Of a DNA stretch of 52,974 bases, positions 6,410 through 52,974 are shown in pieces; position 1 is the first letter of the stretch; every line of letters begins with the position of its first letter. The stretch covers positions 1 through 52,974 of the forward strand of contig JACRNJ010000080.1 in assembly GCA_016219285.1 (NCBI GenBank), in the 5' to 3' direction. The stretch comes from Deltaproteobacteria bacterium. GTDB taxonomy: Bacteria > Desulfobacterota > GWC2-55-46 > UBA9637. A program made the position numbers and the translations under genes. A model generated the notes under the pieces. That model was not told the origin of the DNA. It saw only the letters and a list, made by a program, of their open reading frames with translations, and ran no database searches.

Positions 6410-6456
6410 GTAGTCTGCCGATTTATCGGCGGTGAACCCAGCCTAAGGCTGGACTA
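6410..6456. repeat. Partial copy of the GTAGTTTGCC palindromic element (family A)
   Basis: GTAGTCTGCCGATTTATCGG starts at 6410. The same terminal sequence recurs at 35427, 38735 (reverse), 39769, 47121 and 49295. After it comes the hairpin CCAGCCTAAGGCTGG. Confidence 0.7.
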
Positions 6457-35102: not shown

Positions 35103-35719
35103 ACATGTCCTTTATCAGTTTTTTTGTTCTTGCCATTAAGTTTTTATATGTCATCAATTCATTTCTTGCATCCGTAAACTGCAAGTGGATTTTTCAGTTT
35201 TTGATTATTTATACGGCAGCATTATTGTAGTTTGTAAACTTGGGCAATTATTGCAAGTAGAAAAAAAATTGTCAAAGGGAAAATTCAGAAATTCAGAACT
35301 TTTTCTTGACGCATTCTGTTTAAACCTGATAGTCTGATTGCCATACATCCGGAAAATGTAATTGCATTTTCTGGCAAACGCAATCCCCCTGATAAAACCC
35401 TTCCGGGCAGGTTTTGGCCAAACAGTGTAGTTGCCGATTCATCGGCGATTTTAAAAACGTCCATGGGGCACCCAACAGAAGGTTATGTCGGGTAGCTACC
35501 ATACATAAAAGAATATGCTCCGTTTTATCCACGCCCAGAGGGCACCCGCTTCTCCTTGTCCCCTGATAGAAACTTTCAGGGGCAGTCTCTGGCTCAAATC
35601 GTGCCTGTCTGCAGTGACTCAGGCACAGGCAGGCGTTTGCACCCAAAAAATAAAACCAAATGCATTTTTCGGTTAATCGGTGTAATCGTTTCTGAAAAGC
35701 TGTGGAATCAAGTACGTTT
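35103..35719. other. Intergenic region between gcvT and cobO, repeats only
   Basis: About 600 bp between divergent genes. It holds a family A element at 35427-35499, a CCCCTGA/TCAGGGG hairpin (35560-35582) and a TGCCTGT/ACAGGCA hairpin (35603-35632). A 138-codon minus frame at 35320-35736 crosses all of these and is not believable as a gene. Neither a glycine nor a cobalamin riboswitch could be recognised. Promoters for both flanking genes must be here but no clear box pair was found. Confidence 0.6.
35427..35499. repeat. Family A palindromic element upstream of cobO
   Basis: GTAGTTGCCGATTCATCGGC at the left and ACATAACCTTCTGTTGGGTG-type sequence (reverse strand) at the right, ending GTAGCTAC. 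This is the same element as at 49295 in reverse orientation. Confidence 0.75.
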
Positions 35720-38574: not shown

Positions 38575-38735
38575 ACCCTTGACAAAGCTGTCCTTGGCCA
38601 AAGCCAAGGGCTTGCCTTTGGCAAGCCACAGATTTGTCAAGGGTCAACATACCTGTAGATTGACCATCCCCAATGAAAACACTTGGGGACAAGTTTATGG
38701 GCGTGCTTAAAGGCGCCGATAAATCGGCAAACTAC
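38575..38735. repeat. Family D and family A copies between ubiV-like and murI genes
   Basis: CCCTTGACAAAGCTGTCC...GATTTGTCAAGGGT (38575-38642) encloses a second palindrome TTGGCCAAAGCCAAGGGCTT. The end of a family A element (GCCGATAAATCGGCAAACTAC) finishes at 38735. No gene is seen between 38571 and 38824. Confidence 0.65.
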
Positions 38736-39721: not shown

Positions 39722-39768
39722 AGATTGCAAGCTTGCAAACCTATAGTGAACGACAAAAATAAGTAGCT

Positions 39769-39943
39769 GTAGTTTGCCAGGCTCAACCTTATGTTGGGCA
39801 CACCATGGGCGTATTTTAAAATCGCCGATAAACCCCGTTAGAAGTTCATTTTAAGGGAGTTAATGTTAATAAAGTTTCATCAAAATCTTCAATTGAAAAG
39901 CTTCTAACGGGGTAAATCGGCAGACTACAAATTTATGTCGCTG
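39769..39943. repeat. Family A element interrupted by a MITE
   Basis: The element starts GTAGTTTGCC (39769) and ends GGCAGACTAC (39928), followed by the shared tail GTCGCTGCCTATAA. Its middle GCCGATAAATCGGC is split by the 80-bp insertion at 39833-39912. The rest of 39944-40089 holds no gene. Confidence 0.85.
39833..39912. mobile_element. 80-bp MITE with 12-bp perfect ends and TAAA duplication
   Basis: Ends CCCCGTTAGAAG (39833-39844) and CTTCTAACGGGG (39901-39912) are exact inverted copies. TAAA at 39829-39832 and 39913-39916 flanks it. Removing element plus one TAAA restores the GCCGATAAATCGGC of the host repeat exactly, so this is a clean insertion. Confidence 0.88.
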
Positions 39944-40089
39944 CCTATAAAAGCTTCTCCCTGGCAGGCTGCTTAAAAAGTCATCAACAGCATGGGCGTA
40001 AATACGGCGATACGGTTGCAGCATAAGCAAGGTGATAAGGCAAAAAGGGAAAGGGAAAAGGGTTAATAAAAGTCTGCGGCAGGAAAAGA

Positions 40090-45797: not shown

Positions 45798-46460
45798 ATG
45801 GACAAAGACAGCTTAAAGCCGCTTATAGAGACTATTATATTTGCCGCAGATCATCCAATAAGTTTTGAAAAACTTATGAATGTCTTGGAAGGTGAAACAA
45901 GGGATGAGGTGCGGACAGCGTTGAATGAATTGCTCGTTGACTATGCGCAATCAAGGCGGGGATTTACCATTGAGGAGGTGGCAGGCGGGTATCAAATAAG
46001 GACCAGGCCGGAGTTTGCGCCGTGGCTAAGAAGGCTTTTCAAAATCGGTTTTCAAAAACTGAGCAAGGCATCTATGGAAACCCTTGCCATGATTGCGTAT
46101 AAACAGCCTATTACCAGAATGGAGATAGAGGAACTCCGTGGCGTAGATTCAGGCGGTGTATTAAAGACGCTTATGGACAGGAATCTCATAAAGATTATTG
46201 GCAGGAAAGAGGCTCCGGGCAGGCCGGCGGTTTACGGCACCACAAAGGAATTTCTTGAGATTTTTGATTTGAAAGACCTTTCGTGCCTGCCCACATTAAA
46301 AGAAATTACCATACCGCAGGAGGAAGAGATTGCAGGAGAGACTACAGAAGATAATGGCGCGGGCGGGGATAGCGTCCAGACGCAGGGCCGAGGAGATGAT
46401 TCTGGATGGGATGGTCACGGTCAACCACAGGGTAGTGACGGAGCTGGGGAGCAAGGCTGA
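45798..46460 (+). CDS. scpB: Segregation and condensation protein B
   Basis: Condensin subunit with two winged-helix domains. The 220-residue protein starts DKDSLKPLIETIIFAADHPI and includes FTIEEVAGGYQIRTRPEFAP, LSKASMETLAMIAYKQPITR and GRKEAPGRPAVYGTTKEFLE. The last 45 residues (AGETTEDNGAGGDSVQTQGR and on) are not ScpB sequence. They are rluB read in another frame, so the stop has been lost and the genes overlap by 131 nt. Confidence 0.95.
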   Translation: MDKDSLKPLIETIIFAADHPISFEKLMNVLEGETRDEVRTALNELLVDYAQSRRGFTIEEVAGGYQIRTRPEFAPWLRRLFKIGFQKLSKASMETLAMIAYKQPITRMEIEELRGVDSGGVLKTLMDRNLIKIIGRKEAPGRPAVYGTTKEFLEIFDLKDLSCLPTLKEITIPQEEEIAGETTEDNGAGGDSVQTQGRGDDSGWDGHGQPQGSDGAGEQG

Positions 46461-47118
46461 CCCTGAAAAGGACAGGATTGCGGTTGACGGCAGGGTAATC
46501 TCATTGGGGACAGATTTCAAATCTGCCCCCAAAATTTATATCCTGCTCAATAAACCTAAAGGGGTTATAAGCACGGTATCAGACCCTGAAGGCAGACCTA
46601 CGGTAATGGACTTTGTGAAGAAAGTGGGGACAGATTTGAAATCTGTCCACAGATTAAGGCTATTTCCTGTGGGCAGATTAGACTTTGATGCAGAGGGCGC
46701 CCTGCTCCTTACCAATGACGGCGAACTTACCAATAAGTTAATCCATCCCAAATACAAGATCCCCAAAAAATACTTAGTAAAAGTGAGCGATGTGCCTGAT
46801 GAAAAAGATATGGCAAAGCTCAGAAAAGGCGTTTATCTTGGGACAGATTTGAAATCTGTCCGCGGCGGCAGGACTCTGCCTGCCGAGGCAAAGTTTATCA
46901 AAGCTACAAAGACGAATTCATGGATAGAGATTACAGTGTATGAGGGGAGAAACAGGCTTATAAAAAAGATGTGTTTCGCTATTGGACATTCTGTGCTAAA
47001 ATTACAAAGGACGGAATTTGCAGGCATAAAACTTGGCGGTTTAAAGCCTGGGGATTGCAGGATGCTGACCAAAAGTGAGGTGGAAAGGCTGAAGGGGTTG
47101 ACCGAAGCTTATAGATGA
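46330..47118 (+). CDS. rluB: 23S rRNA pseudouridine synthase, RluB type, with three repeat insertions
   Basis: The protein starts at TTG 46330 with MQERLQKIMARAGIASRRRA (S4 domain) and has the catalytic GRLDFDAEGALLLTNDG (Asp about residue 115) plus LLNKPKGVISTVSDPEGRPT. Three palindromes are read in frame: GTDFKSAPK (46506-46530), GTDLKSVHR (46626-46650) and GTDLKSVRG (46840-46861). Each falls between conserved blocks where relatives have a short loop. The start lies inside scpB. All core motifs remain, so the enzyme may still work with these loops added. Confidence 0.93.
   Translation: MQERLQKIMARAGIASRRRAEEMILDGMVTVNHRVVTELGSKADPEKDRIAVDGRVISLGTDFKSAPKIYILLNKPKGVISTVSDPEGRPTVMDFVKKVGTDLKSVHRLRLFPVGRLDFDAEGALLLTNDGELTNKLIHPKYKIPKKYLVKVSDVPDEKDMAKLRKGVYLGTDLKSVRGGRTLPAEAKFIKATKTNSWIEITVYEGRNRLIKKMCFAIGHSVLKLQRTEFAGIKLGGLKPGDCRMLTKSEVERLKGLTEAYR
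46506..46861. repeat. Three copies of the GGGGACAGATTTxAAATCTG palindrome (family B) in rluB
   Basis: Positions 46506-46530, 46626-46650 and 46840-46861. Because the element is palindromic it encodes TDxKSV on both strands, which explains the antisense frames with the same peptide. Confidence 0.92.
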
Positions 47119-47120
47119 AT

Positions 47121-47174
47121 GTAGTTGCCGATTTATCGGCGTCTTTAAAATGCGCCCATAAATGGGCAGACTAC
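47121..47174. repeat. Short family A element between rluB and the glycosylase gene
   Basis: GTAGTTGCCGATTTATCGGC at 47121 and GCCCATAAATGGGCAGACTA ending at 47174. Confidence 0.75.
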
Positions 47175-47178
47175 AGAT

Positions 47179-47871
47179 ATGAAGAACCTCGCATTATCCA
47201 ACTCCCTCAAAAAGATTTATAAAAAACTATTTACTGCCTTCGGCCCTCAGAGCTGGTGGCCGGGAGAGACACAGTTTGAGATTGTTGTCGGCGCAATACT
47301 AACGCAAAATACGGCATGGACAAATGTTGAAAAGGCCATTCATAATCTCAAAAAGGCAAGGCTTTTAAGCCCAAAAAGGATGCATGATTTAAGCCATGCG
47401 GAGCTTGCGCGATATATAAGACCTGCAGGCTATTTCAATATCAAGGCAAAGCGGCTCAAGCATTTTTTAAATTATCTCTTTGACAGTTACGGCGGCAGCC
47501 TTAATAAGATGTTTTATGGAGCAAGCCGACCGTGTCGGCGTAGAAAACACGGCAACACGGTTGCCTCAATCCATAAATTGCGCAGGGAACTCCTTGAGGT
47601 AAACGGCATAGGGCCGGAAACAGCAGATTCAATACTTCTGTATGCAGGCAATCACCCGATGTTCGTTGTGGATGCCTATACAAAAAGGATTTTTTCCCGG
47701 CATCGGCTCATTCAGGCAGATGAGGATTATCACGATCTTCAGGAATTGTTTATGAAAAACATTCCCCATGATGTAAATATTTTTAATGAATATCATGCCT
47801 TGATTGTAAGGATAGGCAAAGATTTTTGCAGAAACAGAAAACCACTGTGCAGCAGGTGTCCGTTGATGTAA
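47179..47871 (+). CDS. HhH-GPD DNA glycosylase (endonuclease III/MagIII-like)
   Basis: The 230-residue protein has FEIVVGAILTQNTAWTNVEK and the helix-hairpin-helix LLEVNGIGPETADSILLYAG. The catalytic Asp is in FVVDAYTKRIF. The Lys used by Nth for lyase action is replaced (GPETAD instead of GRKTAN), so a monofunctional alkyl-base glycosylase like MagIII is more likely. Only three of the four cluster Cys are seen (CRNRKPLCSRC, then stop). Residues about 115-130 (SRPCRRRKHGNTVAS) are coded by two small palindromes, GCCGACCGTGTCGGC and GGCAACACGGTTGCC. Confidence 0.85.
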   Translation: MKNLALSNSLKKIYKKLFTAFGPQSWWPGETQFEIVVGAILTQNTAWTNVEKAIHNLKKARLLSPKRMHDLSHAELARYIRPAGYFNIKAKRLKHFLNYLFDSYGGSLNKMFYGASRPCRRRKHGNTVASIHKLRRELLEVNGIGPETADSILLYAGNHPMFVVDAYTKRIFSRHRLIQADEDYHDLQELFMKNIPHDVNIFNEYHALIVRIGKDFCRNRKPLCSRCPLM

Positions 47872-47881
47872 TGGGTTTGCC

Positions 47882-48361
47882 ATGAATATAGGTCCCGACA
47901 TGACCAGCACGGCTCAACTTGTTGTCTTTACCCTTGACAGGCAGAGGTTTGCATTGCTGCTTGCCTCTGTTGAAAGGGTTGTCCGTGCTGTTGAAATTAC
48001 CTCCCTGCCTAAAGCGCCTGAGATAGTTGTCGGCGTTATCAATGTGCGCGGACAGATTATTCCTATCTTTAATATCCGCAAGAGGTTCCGCCTTCCGGAA
48101 ACTGAAATTAAACTCAATGACCAGATTATTATAGCGCACACATCAAAAAGAATTGTAGGGATTATCGTAGACTCGGTGCACGATATTATTGAATGTCCGG
48201 AACAGGATATCATTTCCGCAGAAAAGATTCTGCCGGGCATTGAATATGTGGAGGCCGTGGTAAAATTAAAAAATGGCCTGCTGCTGATTCACGATATTGA
48301 CAGATTTTTATCCATTGAAGAAGCAAAAATGTTGGAAGATGCGGTTAAGGGATTGCAATAA
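47882..48361 (+). CDS. cheW: Chemotaxis coupling protein CheW
   Basis: The 159-residue protein is a single CheW domain: LVVFTLDRQRFALLLASVER, APEIVVGVINVRGQIIPIFN, VGIIVDSVHDIIE and a closing LKNGLLLIHDIDRFLSIEE. It links MCP receptors to the CheA kinase. It is the first gene of the chemotaxis block; cheA is not in the window and should lie downstream. Confidence 0.96.
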   Translation: MNIGPDMTSTAQLVVFTLDRQRFALLLASVERVVRAVEITSLPKAPEIVVGVINVRGQIIPIFNIRKRFRLPETEIKLNDQIIIAHTSKRIVGIIVDSVHDIIECPEQDIISAEKILPGIEYVEAVVKLKNGLLLIHDIDRFLSIEEAKMLEDAVKGLQ

Positions 48362-48378
48362 TAGCGGAATTTGAAAAT

Positions 48379-49950
48379 ATGAGCGATAATATCTCTCCAA
48401 ACACCCTTGCTGATATCAGCAAGTTCATTGCCTCTCATATGGGTCTGCACTTTCCAAAGGCCCGCTGGGACGGCCTTGAACAGGGCATTGAATCCGCGGC
48501 CCGTGATTTCGGTTATACAGATACTGAAGAATTTATAAGGTGGCTAATGGCGTCTCCCTTGACAAAGCGGCATATAGAGATTCTTGCAAGCCATCTCACT
48601 GTCGGAGAGACATATTTCTTCCGTGAAAAGGAAACCCTTGCCGTGCTGGAAGAACAGATACTTCCTGAATTGATTCGCTCCAGACAAGACAATGAAAAAC
48701 GGCTGAGGATATGGAGCGCAGGCTGCAGTACAGGCGAAGAGGCATATTCTGTTGCCATATTGCTCAGCCAGATGATTCCAGATTTGAAGGAGTGGAACAT
48801 AACCATCCTTGCCACAGACATAAACCCGCGTGCTTTGAAAAAGGGGGCAGAGGGGGTTTACACTGAATGGTCTTTCCGCAACACCCCGGCGTGGCTGAAA
48901 CAGAAATACTTCAAAATGACAAAACAAGGCCGCCATGAGATTCTTCCACAAATAAAGAAAATGGTAATGTTTGAATATCTCAATCTGGCTGAAGATGTTT
49001 ATCCGTCGCTTTTCAACAACACAAATGCAATGGATTTAATATTTTGCCGCAATGTGCTGATGTATTTTTCTGCGGCAAGGGCTAAAATGGTTGTTAAAGG
49101 TTTTTATAACTGCCTTGTTAACAACGGATGGCTTATTGTAAGCCCGGTAGAAGCCTTCACAGCCTCAAACAGGCAATTTGTTACGGTAAATTTTCCTGAC
49201 GTTGTCATGCATAGAAAAGCTGTTGGAAAAACTCAGGCTGTTGAAGGTGTCCGCCATGCGGCAGCTCCGTATTATACGTTGCATCAGGAAACAAGTAGTT
49301 TGCCCGACCCAACCTTCTGTTGGGCGCCCCATGGGCGTATTTTAAAATCGCTGATAAATCGGCAGACTACAAATTCGTCGCTGCCTATAATATATACACC
49401 GCATCAGGAAACAATGGAGCAGGAGGGCAAGGCAGCCGCCGTCAAGGCAGATGAGATTGAAAAGCCCAGCCCATATATGCAAGCCAAAACGATGTTTGAA
49501 CAGGGGAGATATGATGAGGCGTCTGAAAGGCTTGCAGGACTGCTCTCAAATGGGCATGGCGAGCCCAGGGCTATTGCCCTTATGGCGCGGGTTTGCGCAA
49601 ATCAGGGGAGGCTTGACGATGCGCTCTGCTGGTGCAAAAAGGCAATATCGTTTGACACCCTGAATCAAGCGTATTATTATCTTCTTGCCATAATACTTCA
49701 GGAACAGGGGATGCTTGACCAGGCCGTTGATTCGCTGAAAAAGGCTATTTATCTTGACCAGAATTTTGTTATTGCATATTTTTCCATTGCCAATATTATG
49801 ACCAGACTTGGAAGATTAAATGCATCCAGAAAATATTTGAAGAACGCCTCTGACCTCTTGTCTGCATACAAGGCTGAACAGGTGATACCTGAATCAGAAG
49901 GTATTACAGCAGGAAGGTTGTCGGAGATTATAGAATCAATGAGGTATTAG
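48379..49950 (+). CDS. cheR: CheR-type MCP methyltransferase with TPR domain, carrying an inserted repeat
   Basis: Residues 1-280 are a CheR methyltransferase: HLTVGETYFFREKETL, the AdoMet motif WSAGCSTGEEAYSVAILLSQ, LATDINPRALKKG and FCRNVLMYFS. Residues about 370-500 form tetratricopeptide repeats (QGRLDDALCWCKKAISFDTL, QAVDSLKKAIYLDQNFVIAY). The linker between them contains a family A element (49295-49400) flanked by a duplicated YTxHQET. The TPR-fused form is common in non-flagellar or alternative chemosensory systems. Confidence 0.94.
   Translation: MSDNISPNTLADISKFIASHMGLHFPKARWDGLEQGIESAARDFGYTDTEEFIRWLMASPLTKRHIEILASHLTVGETYFFREKETLAVLEEQILPELIRSRQDNEKRLRIWSAGCSTGEEAYSVAILLSQMIPDLKEWNITILATDINPRALKKGAEGVYTEWSFRNTPAWLKQKYFKMTKQGRHEILPQIKKMVMFEYLNLAEDVYPSLFNNTNAMDLIFCRNVLMYFSAARAKMVVKGFYNCLVNNGWLIVSPVEAFTASNRQFVTVNFPDVVMHRKAVGKTQAVEGVRHAAAPYYTLHQETSSLPDPTFCWAPHGRILKSLINRQTTNSSLPIIYTPHQETMEQEGKAAAVKADEIEKPSPYMQAKTMFEQGRYDEASERLAGLLSNGHGEPRAIALMARVCANQGRLDDALCWCKKAISFDTLNQAYYYLLAIILQEQGMLDQAVDSLKKAIYLDQNFVIAYFSIANIMTRLGRLNASRKYLKNASDLLSAYKAEQVIPESEGITAGRLSEIIESMRY
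49281..49414. repeat. Family A element with 14-bp target duplication inside cheR
   Basis: GCATCAGGAAACAA occurs at 49281-49294 and again at 49401-49414. Between them is the element, from GTAGTTTGCC (49295) to GGCAGACTAC (49370) plus its tail GTCGCTGCCTATAA. The insertion plus one duplication is 120 bp, exactly 40 codons. Confidence 0.88.
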
Positions 49951-49997
49951 TTAGGAGAAGCACCAAATTTCAAGCACCAAATAACAAATAAATTTCA

Positions 49998-50366
49998 ATG
50001 AACCAAATTCAAAGCACCAAACAATTTGATTTGGAAGATAGGACGTTTCTATTTGCTAAAAATATTGCTCTCTACGTAAGGCAATTACCAAGGAATATCT
50101 CAAATTTAGAATATGTGAAGCAGGTAGTAAGGTCTGCAGGCTCTGTTGGTGCTAATTACATTGAAGCCAACGAAGCTTTAAGTAAAAAAGACTTTGCAAT
50201 GAGAATCAAGATATGTCGTAAGGAGGCAAAAGAATCTGCTTATTGGTTAAAATTGATAGTAGAAACCAATGATGAAAAGCATGGGCAGGAAGAAGGCATG
50301 AAACTTCTAAATGAGGCTACACAACTAAAGAAAATATTTTCTTCTATTCTTGTAAAATCAGTATAG
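49998..50366 (+). CDS. Four-helix-bundle protein (S23/IVP family)
   Basis: The 122-residue helical protein has the family motifs FAKNIALYVRQLPRNISNLE, VRSAGSVGANYIEANEALSK and IKICRKEAKESAYWLKLIVE. Members were first found in intervening sequences of 23S rRNA genes and also occur alone; their function is unknown. It interrupts the chemotaxis cluster and is flanked by inverted sequences (CACCAAATAACAAATAAATT near 49974, and the reverse near 50390-50426), as if the whole unit had moved in. Confidence 0.92.
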   Translation: MNQIQSTKQFDLEDRTFLFAKNIALYVRQLPRNISNLEYVKQVVRSAGSVGANYIEANEALSKKDFAMRIKICRKEAKESAYWLKLIVETNDEKHGQEEGMKLLNEATQLKKIFSSILVKSV

Positions 50367-50454
50367 TTTGGTTGTTTAGATATTGTAGTTTGAAATTTAT
50401 TTGAGATTTGTTATTTGGAGTTTGTGATTTTCTCGTTTGCAGAGGAGATACGGT

Positions 50455-51087
50455 ATGGATAAAGAAAACAAGACATCGCAGCGGAAAGATGCAAAGGTTG
50501 TCAACTGGGATGAACTCCGCCGGCGCATGGAGAAAAGCCGTGCTGCCCTTGAACATGGTTTGCAGCCAACTACAGAGGAGAAAAACAAGACACTAAAGCA
50601 CAGGGCGCAGATGCTTGCCGTGGAATCAAAGGACAATGAAGCGGCTGAAGAATATATAGAAGTGGTGGAGTTTGTTCTGGCCCATGAAAGATATGCTATC
50701 GCATCGCAGTATGTCCGCGAGGTGTATCCCCTGGTTGAACTTACGCCAATCCCATGCACACCAGCCTTTGTTCTTGGCATAATAAATGTAAGGGGCCGGA
50801 TTTTATCAGTCATTGATATTAAAAGATTTTTTGACCTTCCTGAAAAAGGGCTTACAGATTTAAATAAGGTTATCATCCTTCATTCCGATGACATGGATAT
50901 TGGCATTCTTGCAGATGCTGTTTTAGGCACACATAATGTCCGGCTGAGCGAACTACAGGCGGCGCTTCCAACATTGACCGGAATCCGGGAACAATATCTC
51001 AAGGGTGTTACAAAAGAGCGGGTGGTTGTAATGGATGCGGCAAGGCTTTTATCAGACAAGAATATTATTGTGCATGAAAATGTGTAA
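50455..51087 (+). CDS. CheW-domain protein with N-terminal extension
   Basis: The start at 50455 (MDKENKTSQRKDAKVVNWDE) has GAGGAGAT before it. After about 75 charged residues comes a CheW domain: EYIEVVEFVLAHERYAIASQ, CTPAFVLGIINVRGRILSVI, IGILADAVLGTHNV and a final ERVVVMDAARLLS. The N-terminal region is helical and may bind CheR or the kinase. Together with the other cheW it points to two coupling proteins in one array. Confidence 0.93.
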   Translation: MDKENKTSQRKDAKVVNWDELRRRMEKSRAALEHGLQPTTEEKNKTLKHRAQMLAVESKDNEAAEEYIEVVEFVLAHERYAIASQYVREVYPLVELTPIPCTPAFVLGIINVRGRILSVIDIKRFFDLPEKGLTDLNKVIILHSDDMDIGILADAVLGTHNVRLSELQAALPTLTGIREQYLKGVTKERVVVMDAARLLSDKNIIVHENV

Positions 51088-51114
51088 TCAATTCTTTCAA
51101 AGGAGGAACAGCCT

Positions 51115-52752
51115 ATGAAATGGTTCGTTAATCTCACAACGCAAACAAAACTCACTCTTATCTTTGGCGCTGCAATTGCCTTATTGGTAATTGTTATTAT
51201 AACAGCCAGAATGGGCATATCAACAATTGAAAAATCACAGAAGGGCATCTTTAACTTTGAGTTTGCCAATACAAAGGACATTCTTGAAATAAAGGCAAGC
51301 GAGGGCGATGTGCGGCTGGCCCTGCTTATGATGATGTCTGTATCCGAGAGATCGGACAAGGAGCGGTGGCATCAGAATATTAAGGCCAACTCAGCAGAGA
51401 TTGATAGAATCCAGCAAAGGCTTGCAGAGCGCAATAAACAGGAGCCGTCCATTCTCCGCAAACTTGAAGAGATGAATATGCTCAGGCTGGCCTTCAAAGA
51501 AACCAGGGATACGCAGCTCATACCGTTTATTTACCAAGGCAGGATTGCAGAGGCAAAAAATCTGGCATTGGGCATTCAGTCCGAACGTTTTGAAAAGATA
51601 CGTTCAATTACAGCAGAGCTTGTGAGAGGGGCGGAAGAGGAGGCGCAGCGCCGCATAACCGAGTCGGAACTGGAGATACGGCAGATTGCCGGCATCCTGG
51701 TAATTGTCGGCGCTATTGCCGCCTTTATCAGCATAATTACAGCTTTATTCCTGAATAGAATTATAGCCAGGCCTCTTACGGAAATCTCAGGCGCGGCGGA
51801 AAAGATTGCCTCAGGAGACTTAACTGTCAATGTGCCCAATGACAACAGGGTGGATGAGGTTGGCATCATGGCGCAGACATTTTGCAGGATGGTGGAAAAC
51901 CTCGGAAAGCAGATACGGGATATCATGGAGGCGGTAAATATCCTTGCATCCTCCTCAAACCAGATAGCATCAACAGCGGCTCAGCTTGCGTCCAGCACGG
52001 AGCAAACAGCAGTGGCTGTAACCGAGACCACTACAACAGTTGAAGAGGTGAAACAGACTGTAAACCTTTCCTCGCAAAAGGCCAGGCATGTCTCAGATGT
52101 TGCCCAAAGGTCAGCGCAGGTATTTCAATTCGGTGAAAGGCTTGTGAATGAAACCATAGATGGAATAACGCAGATACAGGAGCAGATGAACTATATCGCA
52201 GAAACCATTGTCCGGCTGAGCGAGCATAACCAGGCCATAGGAGAGATTATTGCGGCGGTTGACGACCTTGCAGAGCAGTCAAATCTTCTGGCTGTCAATG
52301 CATCCATTGAGGCGGCAAAGGCTGGGGAATATGGAAAGGGTTTTATTGTTGTAGCCCAGGAAATAAAAAGCCTTTCGGAACAGTCAAGGCAATCCACAAA
52401 ACAGGTGCGGACAATATTAGGCGATATTCAAAGAGCAAGCAATGCCGCAGTAATGGCAACAGAAAAGGGGAGCAAGGCGGTAGAGGCAAGCATAAAGCAG
52501 TCGGCCGGCACAAGGGATTCTATCAGGGAGCTTTCAAAGAGCATTGCCGAGGCATCTCAGGCTGCGGTTCAGATTGCGGCATCCAGCCAGCAGCAGATGG
52601 TAGGTATGGATCAGGTAACTTTAGCCATGGCCAGCATAAAACAGGCGGCCATGCAGAATGCCGTAAGCACAAAACAGGTGGAGGCTACGGTAAAAAGTTT
52701 GCAGGAAATAGGCCAGAAGCTGAAGAGGCTGGTTGAGTATTATAGGGCGTGA
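51115..52752 (+). CDS. Methyl-accepting chemotaxis protein
   Basis: The 545-residue receptor has a membrane segment at about 13-33, a periplasmic four-helix-bundle sensor region (about 35-190), a second membrane segment ([20 protein letters not shown]), HAMP ([20 protein letters not shown]) and a long signalling coiled coil. Its hairpin tip reads [20 protein letters not shown]. The last residues have no CheR-docking pentapeptide (ends KRLVEYYRA). It follows the extended CheW gene with AAAGGAGG before the ATG. Confidence 0.96.
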
Positions 52753-52834
52753 ATTACCCACCCATGGTTCATCTCAAGAGGAACCCACCCCTGGCCCCTC
52801 CAAGGAGGGGAATACACACCCCTAACCCCTCTCC
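52753..52834. repeat. C-rich/G-rich palindromic repeat before the IS
   Basis: ACCCACCCCTGGCCCCTCCA, then AGGAGGGG, then ACACACCCCTAACCCCTCTC; the right arms expected of this family are missing, as though the IS inserted into it. Confidence 0.55.
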
Positions 52835-52974
52835 AGACTGTGTGAAAACTCCTTTCAATACATACCATATTTGATATAATGACTCCATAAAAAAACATTA
52901 AAAGGAGTGATTGTGTCATACATAACAGGAGTCAGCAGAGATCAGGTCGTATTATTTCCCGAATCCATTGATGA
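52835..52974 (+). mobile_element. Left end of an insertion sequence (runs off the window)
   Basis: The end appears to start near GACTGTGTGAAAACTC (52836-52851), followed by a TATAAT at 52875-52880 and a transposase start. The boundary is inferred from the break in the preceding repeat; the right end is outside the window. Confidence 0.6.
52913..52974 (+). CDS. Transposase, N-terminal start only (IS1182-like)
   Basis: A GTG after AAAGGAGTGATT opens a frame reading SYITGVSRDQVVLFPESID to the window end. The pattern Q(V/L)xLFPEsID is characteristic of the start of IS1182-type transposases. Only 20 codons are visible. Confidence 0.7.
   Translation, partial: MSYITGVSRDQVVLFPESID

What the first reader, a model, noticed from the sequence alone, without database searches (positions are those of the whole stretch)
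49281..49414. Family A element inserted in cheR, with 14-bp target duplication, making a 40-residue linker
The element sits between the methyltransferase and TPR parts. GCATCAGGAAACAA flanks it on both sides, giving YTLHQET and YTPHQET in the protein. The net gain is 120 bp, so the frame is kept. This shows mobility together with addition of new protein sequence to a working gene. Intergenic copies at 6410, 35427, 39769 and 47121 share its ends.
Basis: partly seen in the sequence, partly recalled or inferred. Interest (0 to 1): 0.72.

Follow-up and report, generated by a model that had tools for sequence, protein, structure and literature searches.

The report
Mobile DNA hairpin lengthening CheR linker
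A small mobile hairpin element, present in well over a hundred copies in this bacterium and almost always between genes, landed inside a chemotaxis gene and added 40 amino acids to a floppy linker without breaking the reading frame; the kind of event is known, but the roughly 22-base duplication flanking this copy and one other is unusual for this class of element.

Summary
In an intact 523-codon cheR, a GTAG...CTAC double hairpin (49295-49370) lies between two copies of GCATCAGGAAACAA; the duplication extends imperfectly to 22 bp. The net gain of 120 bp is 76 (hairpin) + 22 (remnant) + 22 (second repeat copy). The insert lies wholly in a linker predicted disordered (pLDDT <50, residues 284-360) and makes it 94 residues long against 55-77 in eight orthologs.

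The element is a REPIN: two GTAG REP palindromes in inverse orientation. A 22-nt REP pattern hits 147 times genome-wide (control 0), and the family occurs in all 11 genomes of its order searched. About 40 copies sit inside a TATAG...CTATA MITE. The cheR copy keeps only one MITE arm; the missing arm would have put a stop codon into cheR.

Corrections: a long duplication is not a family rule (3 of 71 delimited copies; full MITEs show only TA/TATA), and cheR is the only delimited copy clearly inside a gene. Still, an independent REPIN beside argS has a 22-bp duplication that its closest sister genome shows as one empty site, so such duplications are real. No sister cheR allele exists in the genomes searched. 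New member of a known kind.

The parts
48379..49950 (+). cheR: CheR methyltransferase domain + linker + TPR repeats, 523 aa, uninterrupted
   Evidence: ORF; PF01739 CheR 1e-51, TPR families; AlphaFold: two folded parts, residues 284-360 pLDDT <50
49273..49294 (+). left copy of the direct repeat, TATACGTTGCATCAGGAAACAA (last 14 nt exact)
49295..49370 (+). REPIN core: GTAG...CTAC, 76 nt, two REP palindromes in inverse orientation, left one enlarged by nested hairpin
   Evidence: DNA fold -16.5 kcal/mol, z -4.4
49371..49389 (+). remnant of the right arm of the enclosing MITE, AAATTCGTCGCTGCCTATA, 2 nt shorter than the family form AAATTTATGTCGCTGCCTATA
49390..49392 (+). ATA between MITE arm and right repeat
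49393..49414 (+). right copy of the direct repeat, TATACACCGCATCAGGAAACAA
47121..47174 (.). intergenic REPIN of the short form (54 nt), no flanking repeat
   Evidence: fold z -4.8
39742..39949 (+). full-length MITE-borne copy TATAG...CTATA, interrupted by another small MITE (CCCCGTTAGAAG...CTTCTAACGGGG, TAAA duplicated)
38655..38735 (-). REPIN with a nested hairpin (81 nt)
35427..35499 (+). REPIN, long form, opposite orientation to the cheR copy
6410..6431 (+). single REP, no second end found

Best explanation
A REPIN (GTAG-type double REP) that had been riding inside a TATAG...CTATA MITE inserted, together with one MITE arm, into the disordered linker of cheR. The insertion copied about 22 bp of target, so the gene now holds 76 nt of REPIN + 22 nt (MITE-arm remnant plus ATA) + the second copy of the target = 120 bp, coding for 40 extra residues (306-345). 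It survives because it is in frame, free of stops and in a linker that tolerates length changes. Shown: the family, the boundaries, the direct repeat, the open frame, the predicted disorder, and for a second REPIN (argS) the empty site with one copy of the repeat. Inferred: that the cheR repeat arose by insertion in the same way; that the REPIN is moved in trans by a RAYT-type (HUH Y1) transposase recognising GTAG hairpins; and that staggered nicks filled in by repair made the duplication. No function of the added peptide is claimed; neutrality is the default.
For: Family: 147 REP matches at <=3 mismatches in 2.28 Mb, 0 for the reversed pattern; 84 of 92 REPs have fully complementary stems, in alternative forms GCCG/CGGC, GCCC/GGGC and GCTG/CAGC; present in 11 of 11 genomes of the order, 0 of 30 others of the class. 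GTAG-hairpin REPs of the same layout flank RAYT-type genes in the order (L231, L235, L239, L246 and own L036). MITE enclosure: 40 left-arm matches. The cheR copy starts exactly at GTAG. Repeat beyond control. argS: REPIN just after the stop codon, flanked by ACATCTC(C/T)TCAGGCGCTGAAAC twice; sister G004 (97% identical) has the sequence once and no REPIN. Frame: the full MITE has a TAG at its left end in cheR's frame, absent here. Linker 94 aa against 55-77 in eight orthologs, 54 without the 40; pLDDT <50 over 284-360.
Against: No sister allele of this cheR, so the empty cheR site is not seen. 68 of 71 delimited copies lack a long flanking repeat. Three mismatches in the outer 8 bp of the repeat need later mutation. 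No RAYT with exactly this REP beside it was found in the genome or its order. IS200/IS605 enzymes, relatives of RAYTs, do not make larger target duplications (PMC2817692).
Confidence: 0.6

Rival explanations
1. Two steps: a full MITE inserted in cheR at TATA with the usual TA/TATA duplication (DDE-type transposase acting on TATAG ends); later a template switch across the hairpin replaced its left arm by a copy of the far flank, which made the direct repeat and removed the TAG stop.
For: Full MITEs show TA/TATA ends only. In L024 a MITE whose intact paralogue L021 shares both flanks has an 18-nt arm segment replaced by 18 nt resembling the far flank, again ending exactly at GTAG. The cheR remnant arm ends in TATA.
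Against: Joining the flanks with one TA or TATA gives an out-of-frame cheR, so further indels would be needed; L024 lies 170 bp from a contig end in sequence made of abundant repeats; the argS REPIN has no MITE arm and still has a 22-bp repeat.
Confidence: 0.25
2. The added peptide has been selected as functional sequence (exaptation), not merely tolerated.
For: Frame and stop-free reading are kept; the arm that would bring a stop is missing and the other arm has lost 2 nt.
Against: Keeping cheR alive explains both; the linker is predicted disordered and its length varies among orthologs; no conserved residues can be tested without sister alleles.
Confidence: 0.07
3. Assembly error or a decaying gene.
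For: The genome is a draft of 84 contigs and repeats can be misassembled.
Against: The junction lies 3.5 kb inside a contig, with intact conserved methyltransferase and TPR residues and an open frame on both sides.
Confidence: 0.04
4. The repeated YTxHQET units are an ancient linker repeat and the element landed between them by chance.
For: The two copies differ at 3 of 22 positions.
Against: One repeat copy abuts GTAG exactly; none of the eight orthologs has the motif twice; 0 of 330 control pairs score as high.
Confidence: 0.04

Closest known systems
REPINs / BIMEs of GTAG-type REPs mobilised by RAYT (TnpA_REP) (PMC3116915, PMC2817692, PMC8266576)
   Same: Two short palindromes tagged by GTAG in inverse orientation, over 100 copies, mostly between genes; same-layout REPs flank RAYT-type genes in the same order
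   Different: No RAYT found with this exact REP; at least two copies (cheR, argS) are flanked by about 22-bp direct repeats
Intragenic GTAG REPs, and REP dimers within TATAGG...CCTATA palindromes of Anabaena variabilis (PMC3733652)
   Same: REP dimers inside ORFs adding 20-30 (up to 82) residues, argued to be tolerated in linkers; REP dimers nested in a TATAG-ended palindrome
   Different: Different lineage and sequence; here the intragenic copy carries one arm of the enclosing palindrome plus a duplication
TATAG-ended MITEs with TA target (Correia/NEMIS type; PMC10969869, PMC2817692; the TATAG ends of Correia are from memory)
   Same: About 105-155-bp element, imperfect terminal inverted repeats starting TATAG, TA/TATA at the ends
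   Different: Interior is a REPIN; no parent transposase identified here
Rickettsia palindromic elements (RPE) (PMC10969869, citing Ogata 2000/2002)
   Same: Palindromic repeat inserted in frame in a protein gene
   Different: RPEs are often intragenic; here 1 of 71 delimited copies is clearly inside a gene

Membership tests
REPIN (GTAG REP doublet) | two GTAG-tagged palindromes in inverse orientation, under about 100 nt apart | tested here: met
REPIN (GTAG REP doublet) | high copy number, mainly extragenic | tested here: met
   147 REP matches; 1 of 71 delimited copies deep inside a long ORF
RAYT-mobilised REP system (REPtron) | cognate RAYT gene flanked by the same REP | tested here: not met
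   38 Y1_Tnp loci from this genome and its order: none with this REP, though several are flanked by other GTAG hairpins of the same layout; a RAYT in an unassembled part is not excluded
IS200/IS605-type (HUH Y1) insertion | no larger target duplication | tested here: inconclusive
   no long repeat at 68 of 71 copies, but about 22 bp at cheR and argS, the latter with an empty sister site
IS630/Correia-type MITE | terminal inverted repeats TATAG...CTATA and TA target duplication | tested here: met
   (ends) and L011 against L272, for full-length copies; not for the cheR copy, which lacks the left end
IS630/Correia-type MITE | related autonomous element with matching ends | not tested
   no search for a parent transposase was made
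RPE-like protein-coding palindrome | many copies inserted in frame in protein genes | tested here: not met
   only cheR

The most novel reading that the evidence does not exclude
Insertion of GTAG REPINs can generate a target duplication of about 22 bp, which canonical single-strand peel-and-paste by HUH Y1 enzymes does not predict; cheR and argS record two such events, most other copies having lost the trace or spread by other routes (such as inside the TA-targeting MITE).
Probability: 0.3. Interest if true: 0.6.

Novelty: new member of a known kind. Interest (0 to 1): 0.4.

Why it matters
How REPs and REPINs spread is still open (PMC8266576). A REPIN insertion with an empty sister site and a clear duplication (argS), and a second one kept in frame in cheR, give concrete junctions to test against the RAYT model. 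The cheR copy also shows concretely how a hairpin element can lengthen a protein without breaking it: a stop-free frame, loss of the arm that carries a stop, and a linker as landing place.

Tried and rejected
Sister-allele test: impossible with the genomes held (relatives, 63 of the class, 395 of the phylum, GTDB scan); only orthologs at about 45-54% identity. Long duplication as family hallmark: rejected. RPE-like coding preference: rejected. Cognate RAYT next to this REP: not found. Empty sites for 16 copies in G004: flanks mostly too diverged; argS clean, one MITE site near-clean, two loci with a REPIN in both genomes. Long flanking repeats around relatives' copies: none found in the loci at hand. 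Structured RNA in Rfam: none in 46000-52974.

Full report
What is there. The window is contig 82 of a 2.28-Mb draft genome. cheR (48379-49950) is open for 523 codons, with CheR methyltransferase and TPR matches. Between 49295 and 49370 lies a 76-nt GTAG...CTAC sequence that folds far better than shuffles (z -4.4). GCATCAGGAAACAA stands on both sides and extends, with three mismatches, to 22 bp. The arithmetic is exact: 76 nt of hairpin + 22 nt (19 nt resembling the right arm of a MITE, plus ATA) + 22 nt of repeat = 120 nt = 40 codons.

What the element is. Searching the genome gave over 40 copies, most of which align from exactly the GTAG onwards; the REP pattern GTAGTYTGCCGATTTATCGGCG occurs 147 times, the reversed control 0 times. 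In 92 parsed REPs, 84 stems are fully complementary and come in alternative complementary forms, as expected for a conserved hairpin. Most copies are two REPs in inverse orientation: REPINs. About 40 sit in a longer element TATAGTGGACGACAAAAATAAGTAGCT-[REPIN]-AAATTTATGTCGCTGCCTATA, a MITE with TA/TATA ends. The cheR copy keeps the right arm, 2 nt short, and lacks the left. The family is found in all 11 genomes of the order and none of 30 others of the class.

Is the duplication real and general? I delimited 71 copies and compared left and right flanks. Three have a long direct repeat: cheR (22 bp), L074 (22 bp) and L024 (about 21 bp); 330 control flank pairs have none scoring 13 or more. L074 is a REPIN directly behind argS (gene named from its C-terminal sequence, by my own knowledge); its repeat is the end of argS (VSAPEEM and stop). 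The sister genome G004, 97% identical there, has that sequence once and no REPIN. That is a true target duplication. L024 is weaker: it is near a contig end, in repeat-rich sequence, and its paralogue L021 is a complete MITE whose arm appears to have been overwritten. So a long duplication is real at some insertions but not a family rule; full MITEs carry only TA/TATA.

Why the gene survives. The linker is predicted disordered (residues 284-360, pLDDT <50) and the inserted residues 306-345 lie within it. Eight orthologs have linkers of 55-77 residues; here it is 94, or 54 without the insert. In cheR's frame a complete MITE would bring a TAG at its left end; in this copy that arm is absent. Of 71 copies, only this one lies deep within a long ORF on both sides (315 and 192 codons), so the family is extragenic and cheR is the exception.

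How it most likely works. Shown: family, boundaries, repeat, frame, disorder, argS empty site. Inferred: movement in trans by a RAYT-type enzyme. RAYT-type genes in this order are flanked by GTAG hairpins of the same layout (L231, L235, L239, L246, L036), but none with exactly this REP. The duplication is inferred to come from repair of staggered breaks. The rival, full MITE insertion followed by arm replacement, explains the MITE remnant but requires extra indels, because joining the flanks at one TA or TATA puts cheR out of frame (direct reading of the sequence).

Comparison. GTAG REPs within ORFs, adding 20-30 or more residues, and REP dimers inside TATAGG...CCTATA palindromes are already described (PMC3733652). 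RPEs are the better known case of coding palindromes (PMC10969869). In the REP/RAYT papers that I searched by term, I found no report of duplications at REP insertions; IS200/IS605 elements are said not to make larger ones (PMC2817692). The finding is therefore a new member of a known kind, with one unusual feature resting on two good cases.

Limits. No sister cheR allele was found; the che cluster has no close counterpart in the genus and may be horizontally acquired. Nothing is known of expression. Only the first 100 of 147 REP places were listed and 71 copies delimited.

Noticed in passing
46505-46531, 46625-46651, 46838-46864 (rluB-like gene 46330-47118); loci L206-L221: A second palindrome, GGGGACAGATTTGAAATCTGTCCCC, behaves like a Rickettsia-type coding palindrome: about 17 places in the genome, most inside long ORFs and nearly always in the same frame as GTD(L/F)KS. 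Hosts include a class I tRNA synthetase (IMLV type), QueC, a radical SAM protein, methyltransferases, DUF1015 and FliK-like proteins; it is three times in the RluB-like protein. 'GTDLKSV' gave no paper. It may deserve more attention than the finding itself.
   Followed up: partly
L154 against L271; L132 against L183; copies L136, L155, L156: Further hairpins are nested in REPIN loops and spacers; a 27-nt hairpin present in this genome's L154 copy is absent from the same REPIN in sister G004, and the enlarged loop of L132 is a plain ATAA loop in G001.
   Followed up: partly
39742-39949: The MITE-borne copy is itself interrupted by a small MITE CCCCGTTAGAAG...CTTCTAACGGGG with a TAAA duplication.
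   Followed up: no
many REPIN copies, e.g. L133, L134, L148, L130: Many REPINs sit in another recurrent frame GCTCAAAAATTGCCCAGATGCAAGGCG-[REPIN]-AGGTATGTTGAGC, a second larger host repeat.
   Followed up: no
49998-50366, inverted repeat arms 49964-50025 and 50363-50424: A 23S_rRNA_IVP four-helix protein gene flanked by 62-nt inverted repeats (73% complementary) lies inside the chemotaxis cluster between cheR and the next cheW-like gene.
   Followed up: no
47882-52752: The cheW-cheR(TPR)-cheW-MCP cluster: its cheR has no close match in the genus or family; best matches are a distant family of the class (54%), G253 of the phylum (52%) and a contig titled Candidatus Methanoperedenaceae archaeon FeB_1 (46%), suggesting horizontal transfer (or a misbinned contig for the last).
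   Followed up: partly
L214, L174: Longer MITEs (about 217-221 nt) with the same TATAGTGAACG ends but another interior; the L214 locus also holds a GTDLKSV palindrome in a 430-codon ORF.
   Followed up: no
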